Source: Luteibacter jiangsuensis (lineage in GTDB: Bacteria > Pseudomonadota > Gammaproteobacteria > Xanthomonadales > Rhodanobacteraceae). Taken from it: a stretch of DNA of 64,000 bases. The stretch is taken from assembly GCF_030812295.1 (NCBI RefSeq), contig NZ_JAUSSK010000005.1:62001-126000 (forward strand), in the 5' to 3' direction. This document shows positions 13,753 through 63,759 of this stretch, one piece after another. The translations under genes were made by a program, and so were the position numbers. The notes below the pieces were generated by a model. It was not told the DNA's origin, searched no databases, and saw only the letters and a list, made by a program, of their open reading frames with translations. Position 1 is the stretch's first letter. Each line of letters begins with the position of its first letter.

Positions 13753-14667
13753 ATGCTCGCTCGTACCTGCCTTGCGCTCGCCCTCGCCCTCGCCCTGCCC
13801 GCCATGGCGGAAGAGGCCAAGAAAACGCCCACGCCCAAGGAGCTGCTGGCGAAATCGACGCCCGCGGAATGGCGCACGCCGGACCCACAGGACCTCGTCT
13901 ACATGGACCTGCCACAAGGCCGGGTGATCATCGAGCTCGCCCAGGACTGGTCGCCGCTGCACGCCGCGAACATCCGCACGCTGATCCGCGAGCATTACTT
14001 CGACGGCACCCAGGTGATCCGTGTCCAGGACAACTTCGTCACCCAATGGGGCGACCCGGATGGCGACGACAAGAAAAAGGCGAAAAGCCTGGGCACGGCG
14101 AAAGAAACCCTGGCGCCGGAGTTCACCCGCAAGGGCGGCAAGGCCTATCCGTTCACGAAGCTTCAGGACGGCGACGTCTATGCGACCGAGGTCGGCTTTT
14201 CCGATGGCTTCCCTGTAGCCCGCGACGGCAAGGGCGAAGCCTGGATCGCCCATTGCTACGGTACGGTAGGCGTCGCGCGCGATACCGGCGCCGAGACAGG
14301 CAACGGCAGCTCGCTCTACGCGATCATCGGCCAGGCTCCGCGCAACCTCGACCGCAACCTCGCAGTCGCAGGCAAGGTCATCAAGGGCATGGAGATCCTC
14401 TCCGCCTATCCGCGCGGCGGCGAGCCCATGGGCTTCTACGACAAGCCGGAGCAACGCGTGACGATCAAGAGCGTGCGCCTCGCGGCGGATGTACCCGAAG
14501 CCGAACGCACGCCGATACAGGTACTGCGTACGGACAGCAAGACCTTCGCCGCCGTGGTCGAAGCCAAGCGCAACCGGCAGGATGCGTTCTATACGCGTCC
14601 AGCCGGGAAGATCGACCTGTGCAACATCAGTGTGCCGGTGCGCGATCCGTCGAAGAAGGCGCCCTGA
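13753..14667 (+). CDS. Periplasmic cyclophilin-type peptidyl-prolyl isomerase
   Basis: 304 residues with a signal peptide (MLARTCLALALALALPAMA). The cyclophilin domain (about 45-240) has FDGTQVIRVQDNFVTQWGDP (the F/R/Q region of the active site) and later GTVGVARDTGAETGNGSSLY. Large insertions and the ~55-residue extension after the domain make it longer than E. coli PpiA, as often seen in Xanthomonadales. The role is folding of exported proteins by proline isomerisation. Followed by an inverted REP pair and a convergent gene. Confidence 0.9.
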   Translation: MLARTCLALALALALPAMAEEAKKTPTPKELLAKSTPAEWRTPDPQDLVYMDLPQGRVIIELAQDWSPLHAANIRTLIREHYFDGTQVIRVQDNFVTQWGDPDGDDKKKAKSLGTAKETLAPEFTRKGGKAYPFTKLQDGDVYATEVGFSDGFPVARDGKGEAWIAHCYGTVGVARDTGAETGNGSSLYAIIGQAPRNLDRNLAVAGKVIKGMEILSAYPRGGEPMGFYDKPEQRVTIKSVRLAADVPEAERTPIQVLRTDSKTFAAVVEAKRNRQDAFYTRPAGKIDLCNISVPVRDPSKKAP

Positions 14668-50247: not shown

Positions 50248-50790
50248 ATGGACATGCTGCGATACGCGCTTGCGTCCCTTCTGATCGTGACTATCGGTTT
50301 GACCGGCTGCTCTCCCAAATCAGGCCACTTCCAGCGCGACGGCAGCGTAGCGGCCGCGAAAAGGCAGCCCGTCAATGGCACCCAAGCCGTGGCCTTCGTG
50401 AGGTGGTACAGAGGCCTCTGGCTCGGGCAGGACAATTTCTGCACGGTGGACATCCCTTCACGGCCGTTTTACCTCAGGACAGAATTCGTCGACTACGACT
50501 GCAAGAACGACGTGGCGCAATCGGTGGAACTGCAGAACCTTCCGCCCGGCACCGTCCTCTATGTCTACGATTCACCGAACTGCGGTGAGTCCGACGACTG
50601 GGGGAAAGCCACGGTGCTCAAGCAGGCGGCCAGCCTCCAGGTAGGTGACTTCAACCACACCTTCACCGAACCAGCGGGGCTTCAGTATGACGGCCACTAC
50701 CACAACGGCATCAATGGGAAGCTCTCCTGCTTCATCATAGACGTGCCGGACATTAATGGCAGACGCGCAGGGCCGGTGCACGACAAATGA
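50248..50790 (+). CDS. Lipoprotein of unknown function
   Basis: 180 residues. Signal peptide MDMLRYALASLLIVTIGLTGC with lipobox LTGC (Cys about 21). The mature part is beta-rich with several cysteines (FCTVDIPS, YDCKNDVAQSVEL, SPNCGESDDWGKA, GKLSCFIIDV), perhaps forming disulfides in the periplasm; QNLPPGTVLYVYDSPNCG resembles a small jelly-roll edge. I do not recognise the family. A very short lipoprotein with a similar signal peptide follows directly. Confidence 0.78.
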   Translation: MDMLRYALASLLIVTIGLTGCSPKSGHFQRDGSVAAAKRQPVNGTQAVAFVRWYRGLWLGQDNFCTVDIPSRPFYLRTEFVDYDCKNDVAQSVELQNLPPGTVLYVYDSPNCGESDDWGKATVLKQAASLQVGDFNHTFTEPAGLQYDGHYHNGINGKLSCFIIDVPDINGRRAGPVHDK

Positions 50791-52642: not shown

Positions 52643-53776
52643 ATGAATACCCACTCCCGTTCCACCGCATCACTTGCCGACGTCAAGCAACTCACCTACT
52701 TCCAGATCTACAAGACTCATCCCAGCGAGGAGCATGGGACGATCAAGCTCTTCAGCAACGGCAACCAGCAGTGCCCGATCAAGGTCGGGCTGGTCGCCGC
52801 CGATGCCAACGAGAATCCCATCACTCTTACGGCAGAAGAACTCAAGACAGCCCTCAAGCTCATCTTCTACGATGACGGTAGCGCGCTGGGCGACGGCTAT
52901 GCGTCCTCATTCGACCAGAACAGATTCACGTGGACCGAGTCCGCCATCCCGGCGAGTCATCCCGATGCGGAACCGTCTCGAGCCCCCCGTGATGATCTCC
53001 CAGCGGCCATCCAGGTCGTCACGTTCTATGTCTCTGCCGCTAGCGGGTCTTCAGGGCGAGCGCTGGCGGCACGCTTCGAGGTAACCCCCGAGCTGTTCTT
53101 CACCACCAGCCCGTCCGTGCATGATTCCGAAGGCCAGGAACGGGATGGCGAATTCGACTCTTCAGTCGAAGTGCTGCTGGCGGAGCCTCCCTTCCTGTCG
53201 GCCACGGATTTCGGCGCGGCCTCCAACGGTATCGTCACGGGGAGAAAGGTGGGCGACTCGACCACTTATTTTTATTGGGCAACCGAGTACTACCTCAATC
53301 CGAAATTGAACGGAATCGCACTACCCCTGGATTCCGTCGGATCGAAGGCATCCGTCGGTGGCAACCCACCGGCAGGTGCATTCGGCTTCTACACGCATGG
53401 CGACTTCTTCGCTCATGTGCAGTGGGGCGTCAGTTACTACAGCAAACCTGGCGACACCGTGGCCGAATCGGGCGGCCTTCCGATGCCACCGCTCCACTCT
53501 CTCGTCGCGGTCTCGGCGCCTCACGATGCATCGCCGAACGCGGACTATCCCTATGCGATGTACGAGACTTGCGTCGGCCACATCGTAGGACCGGACAAGC
53601 ACCGCATCGTCATAGGAATCCTGAAAGGAAATCTCGCCAGGCAGTTCAGGAACGTGTCAGGCGGCACCGTCGCGGAAGTGAGCGGCACGACCATGCATAT
53701 CCTGGACGCTTACGGTAACGACCATACGTTGTCCCTGTCGTACAACGCCAGCAAAGATGAATTTACGATCGGGTGA
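52643..53776 (+). CDS. RHS-locus hypothetical protein A
   Basis: 377 residues, no signal peptide or membrane segment. The N-terminal ~50-residue beta-rich module (IKLFSNGNQQCPIKVGLVAA, then LTAEELKTALKLIFYDDG) is recognisably related to the start of the next protein (53806), so the two look like paralogues sharing a domain. The rest is beta-rich and Gly/Ser/Pro-rich. I recognise no named family. It lies 198 nt after the aldehyde dehydrogenase and just upstream of the RHS genes on the same strand, suggesting it is part of that system, for example as an assembly or adaptor protein. Confidence 0.75.
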   Translation: MNTHSRSTASLADVKQLTYFQIYKTHPSEEHGTIKLFSNGNQQCPIKVGLVAADANENPITLTAEELKTALKLIFYDDGSALGDGYASSFDQNRFTWTESAIPASHPDAEPSRAPRDDLPAAIQVVTFYVSAASGSSGRALAARFEVTPELFFTTSPSVHDSEGQERDGEFDSSVEVLLAEPPFLSATDFGAASNGIVTGRKVGDSTTYFYWATEYYLNPKLNGIALPLDSVGSKASVGGNPPAGAFGFYTHGDFFAHVQWGVSYYSKPGDTVAESGGLPMPPLHSLVAVSAPHDASPNADYPYAMYETCVGHIVGPDKHRIVIGILKGNLARQFRNVSGGTVAEVSGTTMHILDAYGNDHTLSLSYNASKDEFTIG

Positions 53777-53805
53777 GGTCGTTCCCCCCATTCAAGGACA
53801 ACGTG

Positions 53806-54798
53806 ATGGCAAGGAAAGCTTTCCCGCACGCCCCTTCGCTCGATCTGACCGACGTCGAGGTCATCCTCGAACAGACGAAGGTGTACCGCAACGGACTTCA
53901 GCAAGCCAGGATCAGGCTCGACCTGATATCCAAACACGGTGGTCAACCGTCGGACCTGAGCGTCCGTGAAATTGAAAGCATTCGACTCTTCGATTACCAC
54001 AACCAGGCCTCCGGAACGATACCGCTCTCGGACGACGGCTCCATCACCTACAAGGGCTGGTCGGCCCAACGCGATTATCGCGGCTATGTATCCCAGACCA
54101 CCAGGTCAGGCGAGCCACGGGCCATCCAGTCCTACTTCCTGTACCTATCCGCCAATGCCGACGCCACGGAGACCCTGGACGTCGCCTTCGAGATTCATGG
54201 CGACGATCTATCGATCTGGCGCACCAACGGAAGGTGCTTCATCAACGGCATCGAGCAACCCAAACCCGCGATGGACAAGAAAGTGGGTATCACGGTGACG
54301 CCTGTTCCTCCCGAGAGATACCCCGCCAGCTCCTTCATGCTCGACCGGCGATCGCTCGATCCGGCCAGATTTCTGGATACCGAGAACGCGGACGGCATTT
54401 TCGACGACATCGTAACGGTGTCGATCCTATTGGTGGACCAGACCACCCTCGGCATCCGCAGCATGACCTGCGAGCCCGCCGGCCTGATCCACTGGAAGGA
54501 CAAGGTGTCGAACATCAGGCAACCCTGCTTCACGGGGTATGTCGAGCCGGGCGAAGTGACGATTCACTGGAATGGCGCGCTGGACGGTCACTGGGGCTCG
54601 ACGGCACCGCCGGAGCAGCTCGTGAGCCCCGAAGAGGAGCTAGGCGTCATCGTGCTCTGCGGAAGGGTCGACATTCCGTCTTGGGCCGGCGCACCGGAAG
54701 CGCCGGTGAAGGTGACCATGATGGACGCCCACGGCAGCGTGCAAAGCTGTCACATCGGCTTCGTCAAGGGTGAGCGGGACGAACTGATCGTGACATGA
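53806..54798 (+). CDS. RHS-locus hypothetical protein B (related to A)
   Basis: 330 residues. ATG chosen because AAGGA lies 7 nt upstream. The N-terminal module (TKVYRNGLQQARIRLDLISK, then LSVREIESIRLFDYHN) parallels protein A: an N-G-x-Q-Q turn, alternating hydrophobics, and an LTxxE-like helix. The following ~270 residues contain TLDVAFEIHGDDLSIW and a C-terminal VKVTMMDAHGSVQSCHIGFV. No signal peptide and no known family. It lies 29 nt after protein A and 28 nt before the RHS gene, so co-transcription with the RHS genes is likely. Confidence 0.75.
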   Translation: MARKAFPHAPSLDLTDVEVILEQTKVYRNGLQQARIRLDLISKHGGQPSDLSVREIESIRLFDYHNQASGTIPLSDDGSITYKGWSAQRDYRGYVSQTTRSGEPRAIQSYFLYLSANADATETLDVAFEIHGDDLSIWRTNGRCFINGIEQPKPAMDKKVGITVTPVPPERYPASSFMLDRRSLDPARFLDTENADGIFDDIVTVSILLVDQTTLGIRSMTCEPAGLIHWKDKVSNIRQPCFTGYVEPGEVTIHWNGALDGHWGSTAPPEQLVSPEEELGVIVLCGRVDIPSWAGAPEAPVKVTMMDAHGSVQSCHIGFVKGERDELIVT

Positions 54799-54826: not shown

Positions 54827-57800
54827 ATGACGACCGATGAAACCCCTGCTCCGGGCCTCCTGGCATCGGGGGAACTGTACTCCACCGCGTTTCAGTTCTA
54901 CAGCCACATCAATGCGGACGTGGATGCTCGCACGGGCATGTACTCGGCGAGCGTCGACCTGGCTACGGGCGAAGGCAATCGCCTGCGTGGCCCTCACCTT
55001 CCCTTCCGCCTGAGCTACAGCGCGGCTGACACGATCGACGATGGATTCGGCACGGGTTGGCGCCTCGGCCTCACCGAACTCGACCTCGACGCCAGCCTCC
55101 TGACCCTGTCCAGCGGCGATAGCCACAAGGTCGAGAGACTCCTGTATCTCGAGCCGGCGCATTTCCCGGATCGCAAGCTCGACAGCTGTTCATTGGTCAT
55201 GATGGACCCGGAACATCGGACTGCCGTGGTCGAACATGTCACTGGCGTCATCGAGCATCTCGAGGCGATGTCGTATCCCACCAACCTGCTTCGCCCCGTT
55301 CGCATCGTCAACCCCAGCGGCGACGCGCTCCAACTCGCATGGGAGCCGGATTCACTCGGCATTTCACGTTTGACACGCGTCGTGGATAACGATGGCGAAG
55401 CATTGCTGCAGATCGACTACGCCGACTTGAACAACGTCAAGCTTACCCTCCACCTGGCTGCCGCCGCCCGTCGCGAGGCGACTGTTCCGCTGGAGATGCA
55501 CTTCAATATCCAGGCAGGACAGCTTCAACGCATTGCCATCCCCCTCATCACCGAACTCAATCACAGCGCTACGGCCGATGGCGAAGAAGCGGTCTGGGCA
55601 TTCGAATATCGCACCGTCGATATCATGATGCTTCTCGCGTCGGTCACCTCCCCCGATGGGCTACGGGATTCGGTGGAATACGATACAGAGGCACTTACGC
55701 TTCCCTCCGGAGGCCCTCTTTCGCACATGCCGGCCGTGGCGACGCGTGTAAGGTCGCTCGTGACCGATGCGACAAACGTGGTTCGGGAAAGCCGATACAC
55801 CTATAGAAACGGCGATCTCGATCATAACTTCTATGGCTACCCGGCGGTGCAGTCCTGGGTAGACCGGAATGACCAGCTCCTCCATATGCCCGGCGCGGAC
55901 GCCTATACCTATGGATCGACGGAGTATCAGTATCAAGACGGATCCCTGCTGTGCACGATCGAGCGCAACTACAACCACTTCCATCTCATCACCAACGAGA
56001 AGACCACTCGCGGCAATGTCGTGCAGGACGTCATCACCCGGTACGGCATCGAAGAAAGCACCTCCTTCGAAGACCAGAAGGCGAGCTTCCAGCTCCCCCA
56101 CAAGGTAACGACCACCTGCTATGACCTGCGATTTGCCGACATCAAGCAGGTCACAATCACCGACAGTTCGTATGACGACTACGGAAATGTCCTGTCACGT
56201 TACGACAGCGCCACCGATACGACTGAAACATCTACTTATTACCCACCGGAAGGCGAGGCGGGACTATGCCCGCCCGATCCACTCGGAAAAGTGCGGCGCC
56301 TCAGGAGCCGCGCCACGTCACCCGGAAAGAACGGCGGCCCGATTCGGTCGACGCAGTACCGCTACGTCGAAGTGCCTGTAAGGGATGCCGCAAGGAATTG
56401 GCTGCAGGACCGCACGTACTACATCCAGGCGTCGGGGGAGACGTCGACGGAGTCCATCGCCGGCATTGAAACGACCCTCGCCCACAGCGAGCAATCGTTC
56501 GTCACGGACCAGGGCAACCAGCACGGCAGCCTGCGGCAGGAGACGCGCGAACAGGATGGCCTGACGGAAACCCGCGCGTTCACCTACGAAACCGACGACG
56601 TCGCAGGCACGGTCACCACGCACACCACGCACACCACGCACGATGGCGTGGTGAACACGACAAGCGAGACCCTCCACCTCATCAGTGGCCTGGTGCATTC
56701 AACGGTGGACGCGCTGGGCAACAAGGCCGAGTTCACCTACGACCCCCTCGGTCGCCGCACCAGCGAGGTGCTGTCACCCGATCACGCCGACTACCGCGTC
56801 GAAATGCGCTGGAACTACCAACTGTCGATGAGCGAACGCTGGGTCGATCGCATTGGCATTACAGGCTTGCCGCATCGCGTGTGGATGGACGAGCAAGGCC
56901 GCACCATCCGTCGCGAAGAACCCCTGCCCGATGGGGCGCTGATGGTCGTGCATGAGCTGGAATACGACGGCTTCGGGCAGCTCGTTCGCGAGGTGCAGAT
57001 CGACAGCATGCGCGACGGCAAGACGCTTCGGCTGGAGACGACCTACGCGTACGACGACTGGGGCCGCTGCTCGCGGATGACCTCACCGGACGGGAGCACG
57101 ACCCTGAGCGAGACGGCCCTTGTCCAGGAACCGCCTTCGTTCGGCGACGAAGTGATCACGCGGACGATGCAATGGCAGAGCTACGGAACCGATGAAAAAA
57201 CCGGCTGGCGATCGACCTACCTCGACGCGGCGGACCGACAACGGCGCGCGCAAGCCGGCACATGGTCCGAAACGGGTGCACCCACGGTCGTGTCGACCAC
57301 CACATGGGAATACGACGGGCTCGGCAGGTGCGTAAGAATGGAAGATCCTCTCGGCAAGGCGACCCGGCAGGCGTGGGACGGTTACGACCGCTTGATTCGC
57401 AGCGACCTTCCCGACGGAACCACCGTGCTGCGGGACTACGCACCCGGTCACGAGGATGAACTTGTTGCCAGGCTCGCCATTGTCCCGCCCGAACGCGATA
57501 AAGCACTCCGTGACCTCGCGGGGAAAGCCGGCGAACTGGAACTGGGAACCCGCACCTGGGATGGGCTTGGAAGACTGAAGGAGGAACAGGCGGGCAGCCT
57601 GACAACCAGCCATGCCTATATACCGAACCAGATGAGTTCCGACACGAAGACCATGCCGAGCGGCAACACGCTCCAGATGGTTTACGACCTTCGCCTGCGG
57701 GAGGTGCTGCTCGGATCGACGCTGCTGAATCCTGACGGCGCGGTGGAGGCCGTATTGACCCAGGCGACCTACGACCATGTCCTGGGCCTGCCTACCGGGA

Positions 57801-58882
57801 TCGTCGCCGAAGGTGGATCGATGACGATCACTCCCGACTACCTCGGCCGGATGACCGACCAGGAAATCGCTCTCACCGGTGACCTGCCGCGCGGATGCCA
57901 TGTAACCATCACCCCCGGTGGTCTCGTACTGAAGAAGACGGGTACCGATGGAATAACGCAGACCTACGACTACGATGAAAAGGGACGCCTGAAGAGCGCG
58001 ACCGATGAGGACGTGACGATCGAGCTGTTCTACGACGATCTGTCGCGCCTGGATCATCGCACCGCGCGCTCCGCCGATGGCCGTTCCGCCACGCAGCGAA
58101 CGGCTTACGACCCGCTGGGACGCGTAAACGAGCAGACCTGGGAACACACCGAGGGATCGACCACGCAAACGCGCCGCCTGGCTTTCGTCTGGCGAGCCGA
58201 CGACAAGGTGTCGGAACGCCGCTGGTACGATGACGACACGCTCCTGCGCACGGAGACGATGGACTACGACGACCGCGGCCGGCTGATCCTTCATGGCATC
58301 GACGCGGTCGCTGGCGAACATCCACTCGACGAAACCGGGCAGCCCTACGTAAAACAGGAGTTCGAGCACGACTGCCTCGACAACCTGCGAACCGTGACGA
58401 CGGCGCTGCTCGACGGGCGGGTCAACGTCACCCGCTACGGTTATGACACGGTGGACTTCGACCGGCTGGCCAGCGTAAGCAACAGCCTGGATGGCTATCC
58501 CGGCTACGGCACGCCGCTGGAGCTTGTTTACGACGCGAACGGCAACCTCGTCGACGATGGCCAGGGCCGGACATTGCAGTGGGACGGCGCAGGCCGATTG
58601 GCGAACGTGACGCTGGCCGACAACAGGCGGATCACCTATGTCCACGGCCCGGATGGGCGCGTGAGCAGCGTCACGATCGACGACGTGCCCAGGTACCGCT
58701 ACCGCGAAGACGGCGCCATCGCCTTCGAGGTCGATGCGCTCGAGGGACGACGCTTCATCCGGGCGGAGGGGGGCATCGTCGCCGAGACCCGGCTCGCCGG
58801 GGCGATCCGGGAGACCTTCCTGCTTGGTACCGATCCACAGGGGTCCGTGGTGACGGAGTCCGTGCCGGATGGAATGGCATGA
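54827..58882 (+). CDS. RHS/YD-repeat shell protein lacking the C-terminal core
   Basis: 1351 residues. The N-terminus resembles RHS proteins of the Pseudomonas type (DVDARTGMYSASVDLATGEG, then FRLSYSAADTIDDGFGTGW). Residues ~600-1330 contain many YD repeats (EFTYDPLGRRTSEVL, WEYDGLGRCVRMEDPLGKAT, QTYDYDEKGRLKSAT, YDANGNLVDDGQGRTLQWDG), which in RHS/TcC proteins build a hollow cage. It ends at FLLGTDPQGSVVTESVPDG, exactly where the RHS-associated core (YxAYG...DPxG) normally begins. That core is encoded by the next gene, overlapping by ATGA in another frame. No signal peptide, VgrG, PAAR or immunity gene is visible. A one-base frameshift of an originally fused protein is the main alternative explanation. 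Confidence 0.9.
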   Translation: MTTDETPAPGLLASGELYSTAFQFYSHINADVDARTGMYSASVDLATGEGNRLRGPHLPFRLSYSAADTIDDGFGTGWRLGLTELDLDASLLTLSSGDSHKVERLLYLEPAHFPDRKLDSCSLVMMDPEHRTAVVEHVTGVIEHLEAMSYPTNLLRPVRIVNPSGDALQLAWEPDSLGISRLTRVVDNDGEALLQIDYADLNNVKLTLHLAAAARREATVPLEMHFNIQAGQLQRIAIPLITELNHSATADGEEAVWAFEYRTVDIMMLLASVTSPDGLRDSVEYDTEALTLPSGGPLSHMPAVATRVRSLVTDATNVVRESRYTYRNGDLDHNFYGYPAVQSWVDRNDQLLHMPGADAYTYGSTEYQYQDGSLLCTIERNYNHFHLITNEKTTRGNVVQDVITRYGIEESTSFEDQKASFQLPHKVTTTCYDLRFADIKQVTITDSSYDDYGNVLSRYDSATDTTETSTYYPPEGEAGLCPPDPLGKVRRLRSRATSPGKNGGPIRSTQYRYVEVPVRDAARNWLQDRTYYIQASGETSTESIAGIETTLAHSEQSFVTDQGNQHGSLRQETREQDGLTETRAFTYETDDVAGTVTTHTTHTTHDGVVNTTSETLHLISGLVHSTVDALGNKAEFTYDPLGRRTSEVLSPDHADYRVEMRWNYQLSMSERWVDRIGITGLPHRVWMDEQGRTIRREEPLPDGALMVVHELEYDGFGQLVREVQIDSMRDGKTLRLETTYAYDDWGRCSRMTSPDGSTTLSETALVQEPPSFGDEVITRTMQWQSYGTDEKTGWRSTYLDAADRQRRAQAGTWSETGAPTVVSTTTWEYDGLGRCVRMEDPLGKATRQAWDGYDRLIRSDLPDGTTVLRDYAPGHEDELVARLAIVPPERDKALRDLAGKAGELELGTRTWDGLGRLKEEQAGSLTTSHAYIPNQMSSDTKTMPSGNTLQMVYDLRLREVLLGSTLLNPDGAVEAVLTQATYDHVLGLPTGIVAEGGSMTITPDYLGRMTDQEIALTGDLPRGCHVTITPGGLVLKKTGTDGITQTYDYDEKGRLKSATDEDVTIELFYDDLSRLDHRTARSADGRSATQRTAYDPLGRVNEQTWEHTEGSTTQTRRLAFVWRADDKVSERRWYDDDTLLRTETMDYDDRGRLILHGIDAVAGEHPLDETGQPYVKQEFEHDCLDNLRTVTTALLDGRVNVTRYGYDTVDFDRLASVSNSLDGYPGYGTPLELVYDANGNLVDDGQGRTLQWDGAGRLANVTLADNRRITYVHGPDGRVSSVTIDDVPRYRYREDGAIAFEVDALEGRRFIRAEGGIVAETRLAGAIRETFLLGTDPQGSVVTESVPDGMA

Positions 58883-60054
58883 GTGTCGCGGCCCGCACCT
58901 ATACCGCCTACGGCGCAGACGCCGGCTCGGCAGACGCCGCACGGCTGGCCTACACCGGCGAGATCGTGGAAAGACTGACCGGGTGGTACCTGCTCGGCGG
59001 TCGTCCATACAACCCGGTACTGCGACGCTTCCTCGTGCCCGACCCGGAAAGCCCTTTCCACGAGGGAGGATTCAACCGCTACGCCTATTGCAGCGGCGAC
59101 CCTGTGAACCGGATCGACCCGAGCGGCAACGCGTGGACGGACTGGTTGGCGGCCGGATTGATGGTGGCCCTCTCCGTCGTGGGCACGGTCATCAGCGCCG
59201 GGACTCTGGCCGCCCCCCTCGCGGCCGCTTCGACCGCTGTAGCGACCGCCGCCGTGACCGGCGCCGGAGTGGCGGGAGCGGCATCCGCCGCGATGGCCGT
59301 CGCAGCCGCGACACCGGGCATCGTGGCCACCGCCACGGCGGTTACGATGGATGTGATATCGACGGCGGCGGCTATCGGTTCGATCGCCTCGATGGCGGCA
59401 CACAACCAGAAAGCCAACGCCATCCTGGGCTGGGTGGCCATGGGCGCGGGGGTCGCCTCGGGTGCATCGACGCTCGTGGCCTCCAAACAGATATCCAAGG
59501 CGTCCACCAGGGCGTCGTTTGCCACGCGTGGCACGCCGACCGGTAGTCGTGCGAGCAGGACGACCACGACACACGCAACGGTAAGTGCCGTGAAGACAGC
59601 CATGCCCACCCTGACATCGAGCGCATCCGGCCGAAGCGATAGACGAGGATCGACTCGCAGCCTGGTGACAAGCGATGCCAGCGGCAATCTTCCGCAAGTG
59701 AGGCGGGCATCCGCGGACCTCAGCACGAATGGCGACGAGCCATCCACCTTCTACGTCGGAACGCTGAGCATGCGGCGGGCATTCCGAAAGCGCCAGGGAG
59801 AAAAGCGAAACGCCAACAAACCGTTCCGGCAGGATATCGAAGGCGTCAAGCGGGCCAGCGCCTCGGTGGGATTGAACGTCGAAGCCATAGACATGACGAG
59901 AGAAACAACAGAACAGATTCGACGACGCCTGTCGGAGGATGGCATCCACGTCGTCGTCTCCGGGCACGGTCTCCTCGACGAGCCCGTCATGAGATCGCTG
60001 AATATGCCATCTGCGGTATCCGATCATTTGATCGCTGTGCGGGCAAGTCGATGA
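58879..60054 (+). CDS. RHS core tip protein 1
   Basis: 391 residues. Residues 7-83 are a free-standing RHS-associated core (RTYTAYGADAG, GWYLLGGRPYNPVLRRFLVP, NRYAYCSGDPVNRIDPSG), including two aspartates (Asp55, Asp80) of the kind used in RHS self-cleavage. Residues ~88-200 are a long hydrophobic Ala/Val-rich stretch that could insert in membranes. After a Ser/Thr-rich linker, the last ~100 residues (TFYVGTLSMRR ... GIHVVVSGHGLLDEPVM) align by eye with the ends of tips 2 and 3 but lack their conserved His and Cys. Overlaps the shell gene by ATGA and the next tip by 4 nt. Confidence 0.85.
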   Translation: MSVAARTYTAYGADAGSADAARLAYTGEIVERLTGWYLLGGRPYNPVLRRFLVPDPESPFHEGGFNRYAYCSGDPVNRIDPSGNAWTDWLAAGLMVALSVVGTVISAGTLAAPLAAASTAVATAAVTGAGVAGAASAAMAVAAATPGIVATATAVTMDVISTAAAIGSIASMAAHNQKANAILGWVAMGAGVASGASTLVASKQISKASTRASFATRGTPTGSRASRTTTTHATVSAVKTAMPTLTSSASGRSDRRGSTRSLVTSDASGNLPQVRRASADLSTNGDEPSTFYVGTLSMRRAFRKRQGEKRNANKPFRQDIEGVKRASASVGLNVEAIDMTRETTEQIRRRLSEDGIHVVVSGHGLLDEPVMRSLNMPSAVSDHLIAVRASR

Positions 60055-61184
60055 TGCACACGCTGACGTCAACCTACGGCGCTTACGGCGGGCGCGCCTC
60101 ATCGGCGGCGGCGCGTACCGCTTTCGCTGGCGAGGTGAGCGAGGCGGACACCGGCTTCTACCTGCTGGGTGCGCGTTTCTACAGCACCACGCTGCGCCGA
60201 TTCCTCGCTCCGGACCGGGCCAGCCCGTTCGGACGTGGCGGGATCAATCGTTATACCTATTGCAGCGGCGATCCCGTCAACCGGATCGATCCGAACGGTC
60301 GCACATGGCTGAGGTGGCTGGCGGCTTCGTCCGGACTGGCCGGAAAGAGCACCGGAGCGGCGAGTTCCGTGTCGCCGGTTTCCCGGGACACGAACGACGC
60401 CGCCACGACACCTGCCATGATGACCTCGACCGCCGCGCCCGTGGCCGATACGGTCACCATCACGGCGGCCGTCGACTCGGTCGCCCTGATGGCCTCGAAT
60501 GAGCCGAAGGCCGGCGGCCTCTTTGGATGGATCGGCCACATGGCAAACGCTGCCCTGGGCGGGTCCCATCTCCCGACAGCGAGAAATGGATCGCCAACGC
60601 GGCGCTTCGTAGGTGGAAACAGTCTCATCGAACAGGATGCAGGCACGGAAATAAAACCGGTGCGGAACATTGCGGTATTCATCGATGGCGACATCCCTGC
60701 GCACCGATCGACGCTCAATCGTAATGGAAACAAGGATGTGACGAGAAACTGGATATATGGCACGCACGTCAGGAATCCGAAAAGCCGGATCTGGGCAGCG
60801 GATACAGCGATCAACTACAAGGACCTTTCGAACCTGTTCCCCCACATGACGGGCCGCGGGATCACCAATGCGACTTTTTATTCGGGTGCTCACGGCAAAG
60901 CTGATGGCGACAACTGGGCAGCGGATCGGTTTCATAAATCACCGGACCGGGCCGCGTACGAAGACGACCTCGACGTCACGATAGCAGCGGCCGCGGCGGC
61001 GGGCCTCAACATCGACGTCGAGAATATGGGGGACATGCTGATAACAACCATGCGAGATCTATTGGCACGGGACGGCGACCATGTCATCGCTACTTGTTAC
61101 GGGATAGCGGATCCGGTCGTCATGGAGGCGCTGAACCAGGCGAACGTGAGCTTGTATTACCTGCGACCACCGCCCGCGCCTTGA
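60051..61184 (+). CDS. RHS core tip protein 2
   Basis: 377 residues. RHS core at about 8-83 (YGAYGGRASS, GFYLLGARFYSTTLRRFLAP, NRYTYCSGDPVNRIDPNG), a shorter spacer with LFGWIGHMA, and a C-terminal domain from about 205 (VRNIAVFIDGDIPAHRSTLN). That domain has ATFYSGAHGKADGDNW (His281-Gly282) and DGDHVIATCYGIADPVVMEA (Cys349). A His-Gly after one strand and a Cys after another is the spacing style of clan CD (caspase-like) cysteine peptidases; this is an inference from two motifs. The C-terminal part is visibly less GC-rich than its neighbours. It starts by overlapping tip 1 (ATGA). Confidence 0.83.
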   Translation: MMHTLTSTYGAYGGRASSAAARTAFAGEVSEADTGFYLLGARFYSTTLRRFLAPDRASPFGRGGINRYTYCSGDPVNRIDPNGRTWLRWLAASSGLAGKSTGAASSVSPVSRDTNDAATTPAMMTSTAAPVADTVTITAAVDSVALMASNEPKAGGLFGWIGHMANAALGGSHLPTARNGSPTRRFVGGNSLIEQDAGTEIKPVRNIAVFIDGDIPAHRSTLNRNGNKDVTRNWIYGTHVRNPKSRIWAADTAINYKDLSNLFPHMTGRGITNATFYSGAHGKADGDNWAADRFHKSPDRAAYEDDLDVTIAAAAAAGLNIDVENMGDMLITTMRDLLARDGDHVIATCYGIADPVVMEALNQANVSLYYLRPPPAP

Positions 61185-61229
61185 TCTCCATGACGAGTGA
61201 CCCCTACGACCTGACCCGAGGCACGTCGA

Positions 61230-62360
61230 ATGACCGTGACAATCACAACCACCACGACACCGGTCTACGGCGCCTATGGCGAGCGAAGCGGCTCATCGGG
61301 CCGGTCCCAGAGCGCGTTTGCCGGCGAGGTGCTCGAAGCCGACGCGGGCTGGTACATGCTGGGCGAACGTGCCTACAGCCCTGCACTGCGCCGATTCATC
61401 GCACCCGACGGAGCGAGCCCGTTCGACGGGGGCGGCGTCAATCGGTATGCATACTGCGGCGGTGACCCCGTCAACCGGATCGACCCGAGCGGCCACACCT
61501 GGCTGGGTTGGGTGGGCGCATCCCTGGGGCTCACGGCCCCGGCAGGCGCCGCTCGCGGCGTGTCACCCGCTTCCCGGATGCAGGAGACCGTCTCTACACC
61601 CGTCACCGTGACAACGACGGCAGCCGCAGTGACGGATGCCGTCTCCATCACATCGGCCATCGACTCCGTCGCCCTGATGACGTCGGATCGTCCGAACAGC
61701 GGGGGCCTCTTCGGATGGGTCGCGGTAGCGGCAAGTGCGGGTTCGAGCGGTACCTCCCTTCCGCCGGCCAGAAACGGGGCGTCGACCGAACGTTTTCTTG
61801 GGCTGCGGCAGGACACCCCGCAACGCGGCCGCGGGAAATGGAAGCCGAAAAGGGACATTCATGTCGTGAGCGATCCGCAGATCCCAGCAGAACGACTATC
61901 GATCAATCGTTTCGGAAAGCTGGATCTGGCGACGGAGTGGGCATTTGGCGCCCATGACAGAAATCCGAACAGCGTCATCTGGGCGCCAGACAGCTCGGTC
62001 AACGGACAGGCCTTCACCAAGGTCTTCCAGTTATTGAGCAGACACGGCGTGAAAGAGGTAAACGTCTATACCGGTGCTCATGGCGAGCCTTATGGCAGGA
62101 ACTGGCACCTTCGCACGGGAGAAAGACTGGATGTGGAACCGAAGTTCTTCCTCGAAGACCTCGTGCACACAAAAAGAGCGGCCAGGGCCACGGGAGTGAC
62201 GATCAACCCCATCAACATGGCCTTGTTGAACAGGCAGCAGATGCAACACCACTTACTGAAGGACGGTGTTCACCTCATCGGCAGTTGCTTCGGATTGTCC
62301 GACGAAGTCGTCATGGAGGCGCTGAACATCCAGCAGGCAACGGTGTACCTGCTGACGTGA
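61230..62360 (+). CDS. RHS core tip protein 3
   Basis: 376 residues. RHS core at about 12-88 (PVYGAYGERSGS, GWYMLGERAYSPALRRFIAP, NRYAYCGGDPVNRIDPSG), spacer with LFGWVAVAA, and a C-terminal domain clearly homologous to that of tip 2: KRDIHVVSDPQIPAERLSIN, VNVYTGAHGEPYGRNW (His284-Gly285) and GVHLIGSCFGLSDEVVMEAL (Cys353). The His-to-Cys distance is 69 residues (68 in tip 2). It starts 45 nt after tip 2 with only a weak ribosome-binding site. No open frame of immunity-gene type follows; the next gene is convergent and metabolic. Confidence 0.83.
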   Translation: MTVTITTTTTPVYGAYGERSGSSGRSQSAFAGEVLEADAGWYMLGERAYSPALRRFIAPDGASPFDGGGVNRYAYCGGDPVNRIDPSGHTWLGWVGASLGLTAPAGAARGVSPASRMQETVSTPVTVTTTAAAVTDAVSITSAIDSVALMTSDRPNSGGLFGWVAVAASAGSSGTSLPPARNGASTERFLGLRQDTPQRGRGKWKPKRDIHVVSDPQIPAERLSINRFGKLDLATEWAFGAHDRNPNSVIWAPDSSVNGQAFTKVFQLLSRHGVKEVNVYTGAHGEPYGRNWHLRTGERLDVEPKFFLEDLVHTKRAARATGVTINPINMALLNRQQMQHHLLKDGVHLIGSCFGLSDEVVMEALNIQQATVYLLT

Positions 62361-62382: not shown

Positions 62383-63759
62383 TCAGCGGGCTGGCGTCAG
62401 ATTCCCGACGAGGGTCGGAATGAGTTCCGACACCGTCGGATGAATCGGTACCGCCCATTGCAGGGTACCGATCGGCGCATCCGCGTTCATCATGTCCAGG
62501 ATGCCGTGGATCGCTTCATCGCCGCCCGTGCCAAGGATGGCGGCGCCGAGGATCTTCTTCGTTTCCGCATCGGCCACCATCTTCATGAAGCCCCACGTCT
62601 CCGCCTTCTCCACCGCGCGCCCGACACGTGTCATCGGACGCTTCGATATCAGCAACGGCCGACCGGACTGGCGCGCCTGCGACTCGGTCATACCGACGCG
62701 TCCCAGTGGCGGGTCCACGTAAAGCGCATAGCCCAGGATGCGATCGCTGACCTTGCGCTCCTCCCCATCGAGCAGGTTGGCGGCGACGATTTCGTAATCG
62801 TTCCACGCCGTGTGCGTGAACGCACCCCTGCCGTTGCAGTCACCCATTGCCCATACGCCTTCGGCACTGGTCCTGAGGTAATCGTCGACTTTGATGTATC
62901 CCTTGTCGTCCGTCTCGATGCCTGCCTTGTCCAGGCCGAGGTCGTCCGTGTTGGGACGACGGCCCACGGCTAGCAGCACATGCGTACCGACGACCTCGGG
63001 AGATCCCTCGGTGCAGTCCACGCCGATCTTCACGCCGCGCTCGTGCTTCCCCAACGTGATGCAGCAGGCGTCCGTGCGAACGGCGATGCCTTCGGCTTCG
63101 AGGAACGCACGGATCTCGGCCGAGACGTCCTCGTCTTCGTGGCCGATCAACCGGGCGCTCTTTTCCACGATGGTGACCTCGGCGCCGAAGCGCCGGAACA
63201 TCTGGGCGAACTCGAGACCGATATAGCTGCCGCCGACCACCACCAGATGTCCGGGCACGGTTTGCAGTGGAATGATGGTGCTGTTGGTGAGGTAATCGAC
63301 CTCGTCGACACCCGGGAAATCCGGCACGTTGGCGCGGCCGCCGACGTTGAGGAAGATCTGGGGCGCCTCGAGCGTTTCGCCATTCACCTCGATCCGTCGC
63401 GAACCGGTGAATCGCGCATGCCCACGAATGAGCGTAAGCCCCGGCATCGATGCCAGCCAGTCCTCGTTGCCCTTGCGCGAGTCGAGGATCACCTTGCGGG
63501 CCCGAGCGGCAATGGTCGGCATATCGATGGACAGCGGACCGGTGCGGACGCCGTATTCCGCACCTCGCTGTGCAAGACGGGCCGCATAGGCGCTGGCGAC
63601 GAGGGTCTTGGTCGGCTTGCAGCCGGTGTTGACGCAGGTGCCGCCCACCAGATGCCGCTCGATGATGGCGACGGTCTTGCCCGCCCCGGTGAGGCGGTTG
63701 GCCAGCGCCGGCCCGGCCTGCCCGGCCCCTACGATGATGGCGTCGAAGGTATGGGTCAT
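62383..63759 (-). CDS. FAD-dependent pyridine nucleotide-disulfide oxidoreductase
   Basis: 458 residues. FAD-binding GAGQAGPALA (11-20), redox-active disulfide Cys42/Cys47 (GGTCVNTGCKPTK), NAD(P)-binding VVVGGSYIGLEFAQMF, second FAD motif VWAMGDCNGRGAFTHTA, and C-terminal HPTVSELIPT that supplies the interface His/Glu. This is the mercuric-reductase-like/RclA-like subgroup without the N-terminal heavy-metal domain. The substrate is unknown; a role in redox stress or as a general disulfide reductase is plausible. Convergent with the RHS tips. Confidence 0.9.
   Translation of the reverse strand: MTHTFDAIIVGAGQAGPALANRLTGAGKTVAIIERHLVGGTCVNTGCKPTKTLVASAYAARLAQRGAEYGVRTGPLSIDMPTIAARARKVILDSRKGNEDWLASMPGLTLIRGHARFTGSRRIEVNGETLEAPQIFLNVGGRANVPDFPGVDEVDYLTNSTIIPLQTVPGHLVVVGGSYIGLEFAQMFRRFGAEVTIVEKSARLIGHEDEDVSAEIRAFLEAEGIAVRTDACCITLGKHERGVKIGVDCTEGSPEVVGTHVLLAVGRRPNTDDLGLDKAGIETDDKGYIKVDDYLRTSAEGVWAMGDCNGRGAFTHTAWNDYEIVAANLLDGEERKVSDRILGYALYVDPPLGRVGMTESQARQSGRPLLISKRPMTRVGRAVEKAETWGFMKMVADAETKKILGAAILGTGGDEAIHGILDMMNADAPIGTLQWAVPIHPTVSELIPTLVGNLTPAR

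What the first reader, a model, noticed from the sequence alone, without database searches (positions are those of the whole stretch)
54827..62360. Split RHS system: one shell protein with three separately encoded, tandem core/tip proteins
Seen directly: the 1351-residue YD-repeat protein ends at ...TDPQGSVVTESVPDG, and the RHS-associated core that normally continues the chain (YxAYG ... GDPVNRIDPxG) starts as a new gene overlapping by ATGA. Two more genes start at the same point of the core. Known: RHS/TcC proteins normally carry shell, core and variable tail in one chain, with self-cleavage after the core; short free-standing RHS-core proteins also occur, as I recall, in Pseudomonas. Inference: the three tips may be alternative plugs/cargoes that complete one shell in trans, giving several loads from one cage, or tips 2 and 3 may be a silent reservoir for recombination into the first position.
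Basis: partly seen in the sequence, partly recalled or inferred. Interest (0 to 1): 0.82.

Follow-up and report, generated by a model that had tools for sequence, protein, structure and literature searches.

The report
Split toxin cage with interchangeable plugs
A soil bacterium encodes a hollow toxin cage separately from its closing end pieces, with one shell gene and a row of end-piece genes that mostly carry toxin-like domains, so one cage could plausibly be loaded with several cargoes; relatives show the same layout, so it is real rather than a sequencing error.

Summary
A 1351-aa RHS shell (54827-58882) stops where the RHS core would begin and overlaps a 391-aa core+tail gene by ATGA; two more core+tail genes follow, and two lie just past the window. 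The genus is Luteibacter. Of 11 Luteibacter genomes with this shell (23 searched), 8 are split, at three break points; 3 have single-chain versions. A Stenotrophomonas MAG and a Pseudomonas strain show the same layout at other break points. This excludes a simple frameshift and disfavours a silent reservoir: cores are diverged (65-76% DNA identity) while tails are homologous, opposite to published displaced-tip arrays. Two unforeseen results: the tip beside the shell lacks an intact His/Cys pair of the Tox-HDC tail in 6 of 7 scored split loci (both residues in 5, the Cys in one), while 21 of 21 other tips keep it; and an uncharacterised gene upstream (up2) occurs in exactly the 11 shell genomes. 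Two complete split-locus genomes match neither the T6SS VipB nor the TcA model, so delivery is open. Best reading: a TcB/TcC-like trans-assembled cage cut at its seal, with a blank default plug and enzyme-bearing alternatives. Assembly in trans is inferred.

The parts
52643..53776 (+). up1, 377 aa, uncharacterised partner, related to up2
   Evidence: No Pfam or NCBIfam family at the thresholds used; one weak PHROG (E 0.089). Homologues upstream of most Luteibacter shells; fused to up2 in G009, G014, G001, G012.
53773..54798 (+). up2, 341 aa, uncharacterised partner with an NGxQQ motif, 28 nt before the shell
   Evidence: Profile A2 matches 11 of 23 Luteibacter genomes, exactly those with the shell. 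Pfam over 13 members: only two weak hits, E 0.15 and 0.21; no PDB match up to E 1.
54827..58882 (+). RHS/YD-repeat shell, 1351 aa, stops just before the RHS core
   Evidence: PF05593, TIGR01643; the profile of A1 matches solved Rhs cages, e.g. 8cp6, 7q97, 8h8a, 8qjd, at E 1.6e-11 to 2.8e-11.
58879..60054 (+). Tip 1, 391 aa: RHS core + long hydrophobic stretch + pseudo-Tox-HDC tail without the His/Cys pair
   Evidence: TIGR03696; His and Cys columns hold L and G, hydrophobic windows counted; orthologous tail in G009 and G004.
58900..59127 (+). RHS-associated core of tip 1
   Evidence: TIGR03696 at C5:120900-121127, aa 8-83.
60051..61184 (+). Tip 2, 377 aa: RHS core + Tox-HDC tail with His (GAHG) and Cys (TCYG)
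   Evidence: PF15656 E 5.9e-5; TIGR03696; motif positions.
60075..60299 (+). RHS-associated core of tip 2
   Evidence: C5:122075-122299.
61230..62360 (+). Tip 3, 376 aa: RHS core + Tox-HDC tail with His (GAHG) and Cys (SCFG)
   Evidence: PF15656 E 8.5e-11; TIGR03696; motif positions.
61266..61496 (+). RHS-associated core of tip 3
   Evidence: C5:123266-123496.

Best explanation
This is a trans-assembled RHS cage. The 1351-aa shell makes the barrel. The ~85-residue RHS core, which in solved Rhs proteins spirals inward and seals one end, is supplied by a separate small protein that carries the cargo behind it. Five such seal+cargo proteins are encoded (three in the window). The first, overlapping the shell gene, has a decayed, non-catalytic tail and would act as the default or structural closure. 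The others carry Tox-HDC tails and would replace it, so one shell type yields a mixed population of cages. Shown: the split, its conservation at several break points, tandem tips that start near the local break point, loss of an intact His/Cys pair in most first tips, and co-occurrence with up2. Inferred: that tips bind the shell in trans, that tip 1 is a blank plug, and that the tails are toxins. Delivery is unknown; up1/up2 are candidate partners.
For: Split in 8 of 11 Luteibacter genomes that hold the shell, at three break points: before YxAYG (G000, G009, G004, G007), after YxAFG (G001, G014), near shell residue 966 (G012, G013). In G001, G012 and G013 the homologous part of the further tips also begins near that genome's own break point. 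A Stenotrophomonas MAG (L068) and Pseudomonas sp. TNT3 (L092) have other break points, each with two tips starting at the local point. Single-chain relatives are collinear across the junction. The tip core aligns to the C-terminal end of solved cages (8h8a 1091-1151 of 1152; 7q97 1231-1290). Ribosome-binding sites better than the 5% background value (-7.3 kcal/mol) precede the first tips of G004, G007 and G012 (-8.3, -12.0, -8.7). The first tip lacks an intact His/Cys pair in 6 of 7 scored split loci against 0 of 21 other tips. up2 is in 11 of 11 shell genomes and 0 of 12 others. Precedent: YenB packages three TcC cargoes from separate genes (PMC11067744).
Against: Short free-standing RHS-core ORFs are common in the 14 genomes, also away from a shell, so tips may work alone. 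Cores within a locus are barely more alike than between loci (0.606 against 0.583), so no clear co-adaptation to the local shell. G001 tip 1 keeps His and Cys, and in G013 an H falls in the His column of the first tip (its Cys is missing). First tips of G000, G009 and G004 are one orthologous group and G012/G013 another, so the 6 of 7 hold perhaps three independent events. Both single-chain copies of G006 also have no Cys. Tips 4 and 5 are separated from the shell by an opposite-strand gene. First tips of G000 and G009 have no ribosome-binding site beyond the 5% background (-5.7, -5.1).
Confidence: 0.5

Rival explanations
1. Tips are independent secreted proteins. The core is only a processing or folding domain, and the shell is completed by tip 1 alone or works empty.
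For: Free-standing short core ORFs are common in the genomes searched; six non-Luteibacter shells stop before the core with no core ORF within 3 kb (L075, L080, L083, L086, L102, L106); later type A tips scored have little of the hydrophobic stretch of single-chain versions and tip 1.
Against: Tips cluster directly behind the shell, start near its own break point in several lineages, and keep the whole core with both protease Asp invariant.
Confidence: 0.25
2. Programmed frameshift, reinitiation or stop readthrough makes a shell-tip 1 fusion, so this is an ordinary single-chain RHS protein with extra orphan tips.
For: ATGA overlaps in G000, G001 and G014; shell and tip 1 share a frame across a stop in G004 and G007.
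Against: The relation of the two genes differs between relatives (overlap; 23-nt gap in G009; in-frame stop; 67-nt gap in G012), and ribosome-binding sites beyond background precede the tip starts of G004, G007 and G012.
Confidence: 0.12
3. Tips 2-5 are a silent reservoir of displaced tips, as in Escherichia coli rhs loci, used by recombination into position 1.
For: Tandem array; degraded members in G001 (a 185-aa fragment) and G013 (one copy cut by a stop codon, one fragment).
Against: Published displaced arrays have identical cores and distinct tips (PMC2935791, passages); here cores are 65-76% identical in DNA, exact matches at most 22 nt, tails are homologous, and active-site pairs are kept in 21 of 21 non-first tips scored.
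Confidence: 0.1
4. Sequencing error or pseudogene.
For: None found for the window; one Pseudomonas locus (L074) does look frameshifted in this region.
Against: Eight genomes are split, in different frames, two of them by an in-frame stop that no indel error gives; the coding signature changes at the ATG.
Confidence: 0.03

Closest known systems
TcB/TcC subunits of Tc (ABC) toxins, e.g. YenB with YenC1-3
   Same: An RHS cage made from two chains, one of which carries seal and cargo; one B can package several C cargoes from separate genes (PMC11067744: abstract, section 2.2 and passages).
   Different: TcC also brings RHS repeats (97.2% of 2,528 TcCs are 851-1,050 aa; PMC7861908, passages); here a tip brings only the core (369-391 aa in this genome). 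No SpvB match in this genome; TcA matched in only two of the eight split-locus genomes, G000 and G013.
T6SS Rhs effectors (RhsA, Tse5, Tse15)
   Same: RHS barrel with a C-terminal aspartyl-protease-type seal (PMC8765631, passages); the shell profile matches solved cages of Tse5 and other Rhs proteins.
   Different: RhsA is one chain with an N-terminal PAAR domain and plug. The shell here shows no such domain, and G009 and G001 (one contig, 100% complete) have no VipB match.
Displaced rhs tip arrays of Enterobacteriaceae
   Same: Several core-tip units in a row behind one long rhs gene.
   Different: Those have identical cores and distinct tips (PMC2935791, passages); the reverse here.
Free-standing RHS-core ORFs of Pseudomonas genomes
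   Same: Short open frames with an RHS core (many of about 180-460 aa among the listed matches).
   Different: Those were not placed relative to a shell one by one; here they follow the shell and begin near its break point.

Membership tests
Tc toxin TcB/TcC | RHS cage built from two chains with cargo on the C-terminal one | tested here: inconclusive
   Gene layout fits; assembly not tested.
Tc toxin TcB/TcC | TcB SpvB/propeller part that docks on TcA | tested here: not met
   No SpvB match in the genome; no such Pfam domain on the shell. The TcB middle domains were not searched genome-wide.
Tc toxin TcB/TcC | TcA partner | tested here: not met
   G000 has one TcA-like gene without a gene of this RHS family nearby, but no TcA match in G009, G004, G007, G001, G012, G014.
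T6SS Rhs effector | PAAR or prePAAR domain, VgrG neighbour | tested here: not met
   No PAAR-type Pfam or NCBIfam hit at E 0.001 on shell, tips, up1 or up2; vgrG itself was not searched.
T6SS Rhs effector | T6SS in the genome | tested here: not met
   VipB in 15 of 23 genomes, G000 included; no match in split-locus genomes G009, G001, G014.
Rhs_assc_core (TIGR03696) | Core domain over the curated cut-off | tested here: met
   68.0, 69.0 and 71.3 bits against 32.5.
Self-cleaving RHS core | Two catalytic Asp | tested here: met
   D60 and D85 invariant in 24 of 24 rows of A3; that these are the catalytic pair is recalled, not tested.
Self-cleaving RHS core | PxxxxDPxGL cleavage motif | tested here: not met
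   Leu absent in the 26 motifs printed; 5 of 31 rows did not match the search pattern. Cleavage itself not tested.
Tox-HDC (PF15656) | Family score and His/Cys signature | tested here: met
   Tips 2 and 3 over cut-off; tips 2-5 keep both residues. Tip 1 has no Pfam hit and lacks both.
Displaced rhs tip array | Identical cores, distinct tips | tested here: not met
Polymorphic toxin with cognate immunity | Immunity gene after each toxin | tested here: inconclusive
   17 gaps between adjacent tips measured in six Luteibacter genomes, L068 and L092 are -4 to 340 nt, too short in most for an immunity gene; longer gaps with other genes (G000 tips 3-4, G004 tips 1-2, G009 tips 4-5 and 6-7, G012 copies 4-5) and the G013 copies were left out, and immunity function was not tested.

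The most novel reading that the evidence does not exclude
A cage with exchangeable seals: the shell is made with a dedicated blank plug (an inactive tip kept in first position), and enzyme-bearing seals compete for the same socket, so the cell sets the cargo mix by tip expression and not by recombination. It works with a dedicated up1/up2 partner and a delivery route that is neither T6SS nor Tc.
Probability: 0.3. Interest if true: 0.78.

Novelty: new variant of a known kind. Interest (0 to 1): 0.63.

Why it matters
If tips seal the shell in trans, the RHS core is a detachable, standard closure. That would suggest a function for the many free-standing RHS-core ORFs of Pseudomonas and relatives, and show a non-recombinational way to vary cargo. 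The blank first plug makes a testable prediction. The tight link of up2 to the shell points to an RHS delivery or assembly partner that no library searched here names, in genomes some of which match neither the T6SS nor the TcA model.

Tried and rejected
Frameshift or sequencing error: rejected. Silent reservoir by shared DNA: disfavoured. Tc delivery: TcA is matched in only two of the eight split-locus genomes, G000 and G013. T6SS delivery: no VipB in three split-locus genomes. A contractile sheath (PF04984) as a common route: no match in split-locus genomes G009, G001, G007, G012, G013; below cut-off in G000 and G004; a match in G014. Co-adaptation of cores to their shell: weak, inconclusive. 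L074 was first taken as a split and dropped as frameshift-like; L101 is broken and was not counted. Identity of up1/up2: no family found (for up2 only, 42 for up2 only, 64, 70). Tails of the Stenotrophomonas and Pseudomonas tips: no Pfam toxin; one sub-cut-off F-box hit on an L107 tip, so the blank-first-tip rule could not be tested there. Structure prediction: not available. Literature searches (listings) showed nothing that describes a split RHS shell with core-only partners; the library is open-access only.

The tip alignment scored 31 rows. Not scored: G007 tip 2 (cut by the contig end), the G014 tip (contig end), G013 fragment 3. The 21 non-first tips are 18, one of them a 185-aa core-less fragment of G001 and one a G013 copy interrupted upstream by a stop, plus three G009 tips read by eye. 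The start of G009 tip 1 was placed by eye.
Full report
What is there. The window lies in contig C5 of a genome whose genus is Luteibacter, named through relatives of the same genus. The shell ORF 54827-58882 codes 1351 aa and ends ...GTDPQGSVVTESVPDGMA. Tip 1 (58879-60054) overlaps it by ATGA, tip 2 (60051-61184) overlaps tip 1 by four bases, tip 3 (61230-62360) follows after 45 nt. Each tip starts with an RHS-associated core. The genome holds nine such cores; two lie just beyond the window, in 369- and 379-aa genes (C5:126040-127149, 127189-128328) behind an opposite-strand oxidoreductase gene. So this locus has one shell and five tips.

Is the split real? Yes. Codon-position composition shows that the tip-1 frame becomes coding only at its ATG. 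Among 61 genomes searched with the shell, 16 gave a match. Eleven of these, all Luteibacter (23 genomes of the genus were in the search), hold this shell; the other five (G016, G018, G021, G031, G040) are partial hits to other RHS genes. Eight of the 11 are split: G000, G009, G004 and G007 before the YxAYG of the core; G001 and G014 just after it; G012 and G013 near shell residue 966, where the last repeats travel with the tip. G005, G006 and G019 each carry two single-chain copies. One copy each of G019 and G005, printed, reads collinearly across the junction. In G004 and G007 shell and tip 1 are in one frame with a stop between, which no indel error gives. In a tree of 28 selected shells, 12 Luteibacter rows form one clade (100/100); the two G006 copies lie outside it, with a fused Pseudomonas shell (L064) nearer. 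Within the clade the split-B pair branches first, then the split-C pair, and the fused G005/G019 copies sit beside split A, so several splits or break-point shifts occurred.

Other genera. Of the 77 loci (a pattern-based scan, best 80 kept), L068 (Stenotrophomonas MAG) and L092 (Pseudomonas sp. TNT3) have a shell that stops and two core-bearing ORFs beginning at the same place, each at its own break point. L087 (Photorhabdus) has a shell and one core ORF. In one search, among non-Luteibacter shells whose profile match starts near the N-terminus and which do not run off the contig, I counted 18 fused, three clear splits (L068, L087, L092), two doubtful ones dropped (L074, L101), and six that stop before the core with no core ORF within 3 kb. 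So the single chain is the commoner form outside Luteibacter.

Tips. Tails of tips 2 and 3 are Tox-HDC over cut-off. Fourteen of 24 aligned tips match Tox-HDC at E 0.01. The published table lists Tox-HDC as alpha+beta with H, D, C and no immunity partner (PMC3482391, passages). In the alignment (31 rows) an intact His/Cys pair is missing from the first tip in six of seven scored split loci: G000, G009, G004, G007 and G012 lack both residues; in G013 an H falls in the His column of an otherwise dissimilar tail and the Cys is missing; G001 keeps both. All 21 other tips scored in those loci keep both (18, three more of G009). An unweighted count gives 1.9e-5, but the rows are related: G000, G009 and G004 first tips are one orthologous pseudo-HDC group (last 150 aa: 34.6% and 27.4% to G000), the G012/G013 pair is another (22.7%, E 1e-8), and G007 has a third kind of tail. 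Among single-chain copies, four (G005, G019) keep the pair and two (G006) do not. In break-type A, first tips keep a long hydrophobic stretch (44-64 windows over threshold), and later tips have 0-14 (G000 tips 2-5, G009 tips 2-4, G004 tips 2-3). The single-chain copies of G005 and G019 have both stretch and pair.

Not a reservoir. Cores of the five tips are 65-76% identical in DNA with exact matches of at most 22 nt. In Enterobacteriaceae displaced tips differ while cores are identical (PMC2935791, passages). Here it is the other way round.

Partners and delivery. up1 and up2 are related to each other and lie upstream; up2 occurs in 11 of 23 genomes, the same 11 that hold the shell. No Pfam or NCBIfam family names them; up2 has no PDB match (up1 was not searched there). 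TcA is matched in 7 of 23 genomes but not in G009, G004, G007, G001, G012, G014. VipB is matched in 15 of 23 but not in G009, G001, G014. G009 and G001 are listed as single-contig genomes at 100% completeness. Thus neither T6SS nor Tc can be the common route, unless partners are missed by these models.

Mechanism. In solved Rhs proteins the C-terminal conserved region spirals in and seals the cage, and acts as aspartyl autoprotease in RhsA and Tc (PMC8765631, passages). The tip core aligns to that end in 8h8a and 7q97; the best-scoring chain is a mosquito salivary gland surface protein (8fjp) ('mosquito' is recalled). A separate seal with its cargo is therefore structurally sensible, and YenB with three TcC cargoes is a tested precedent for one shell half with several loads (PMC11067744, abstract, section 2.2, passages). 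The Luteibacter type A cut is extreme: the cargo chain brings only the seal. Cleavage is uncertain, since both Asp are invariant but the Leu of PxxxxDPxGL is not present in any of the 26 motifs printed. Enzyme or target of the tails is unknown; the HG and C motifs resemble clan CD cysteine peptidases from memory only, untested.

Verdict. Real, conserved and repeatedly evolved; a new variant of the trans-assembled RHS cage, with a blank first plug as the new and testable element. Trans assembly itself remains inferred.

Noticed in passing
window 50248-50790 (+): Small lipoprotein-like gene (LTGC near the N-terminus) of a Cys-patterned family with no Pfam name; relatives lie in the RHS loci of G004, G005, G009 and G019 (32-34% identity), in G009 as two multi-domain copies between tips 6 and 7. 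Possible accessory or protective protein.
   Followed up: partly
G000 C5:456848-466528 (L136:6848-16528): A 3226-aa TcA-like protein with no gene of this RHS family in the 35 kb read around it, and no SpvB match in the genome.
   Followed up: partly
L011:8754-15264 (-): A second long protein (1802 aa, weak match to the shell) overlapping a 370-aa core-bearing ORF, so possibly another split RHS pair in the same genome.
   Followed up: no
L014:9855-10862; L013:10064-11086: Core-bearing genes of 335 and 340 aa with hydrophobic-looking N-terminal regions and no other match to this shell in their 20-kb stretches.
   Followed up: no
L145:2051-7465 (G009): Three further tips some kilobases downstream, among other genes, giving G009 seven tips for one shell.
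   Followed up: partly
L054:10280-12595 and 14104-14616 (G013): Decayed tip copies: one interrupted by a stop codon, one fragment; with the 185-aa fragment in G001 this shows turnover of the array.
   Followed up: no
window 62383-63759 (-): FAD-dependent disulfide-oxidoreductase-like gene (named from its sequence, recalled) between tips 3 and 4; a like gene lies beside the loci of G005, G012 and G013, so the RHS island seems to sit at a conserved chromosomal site.
   Followed up: no
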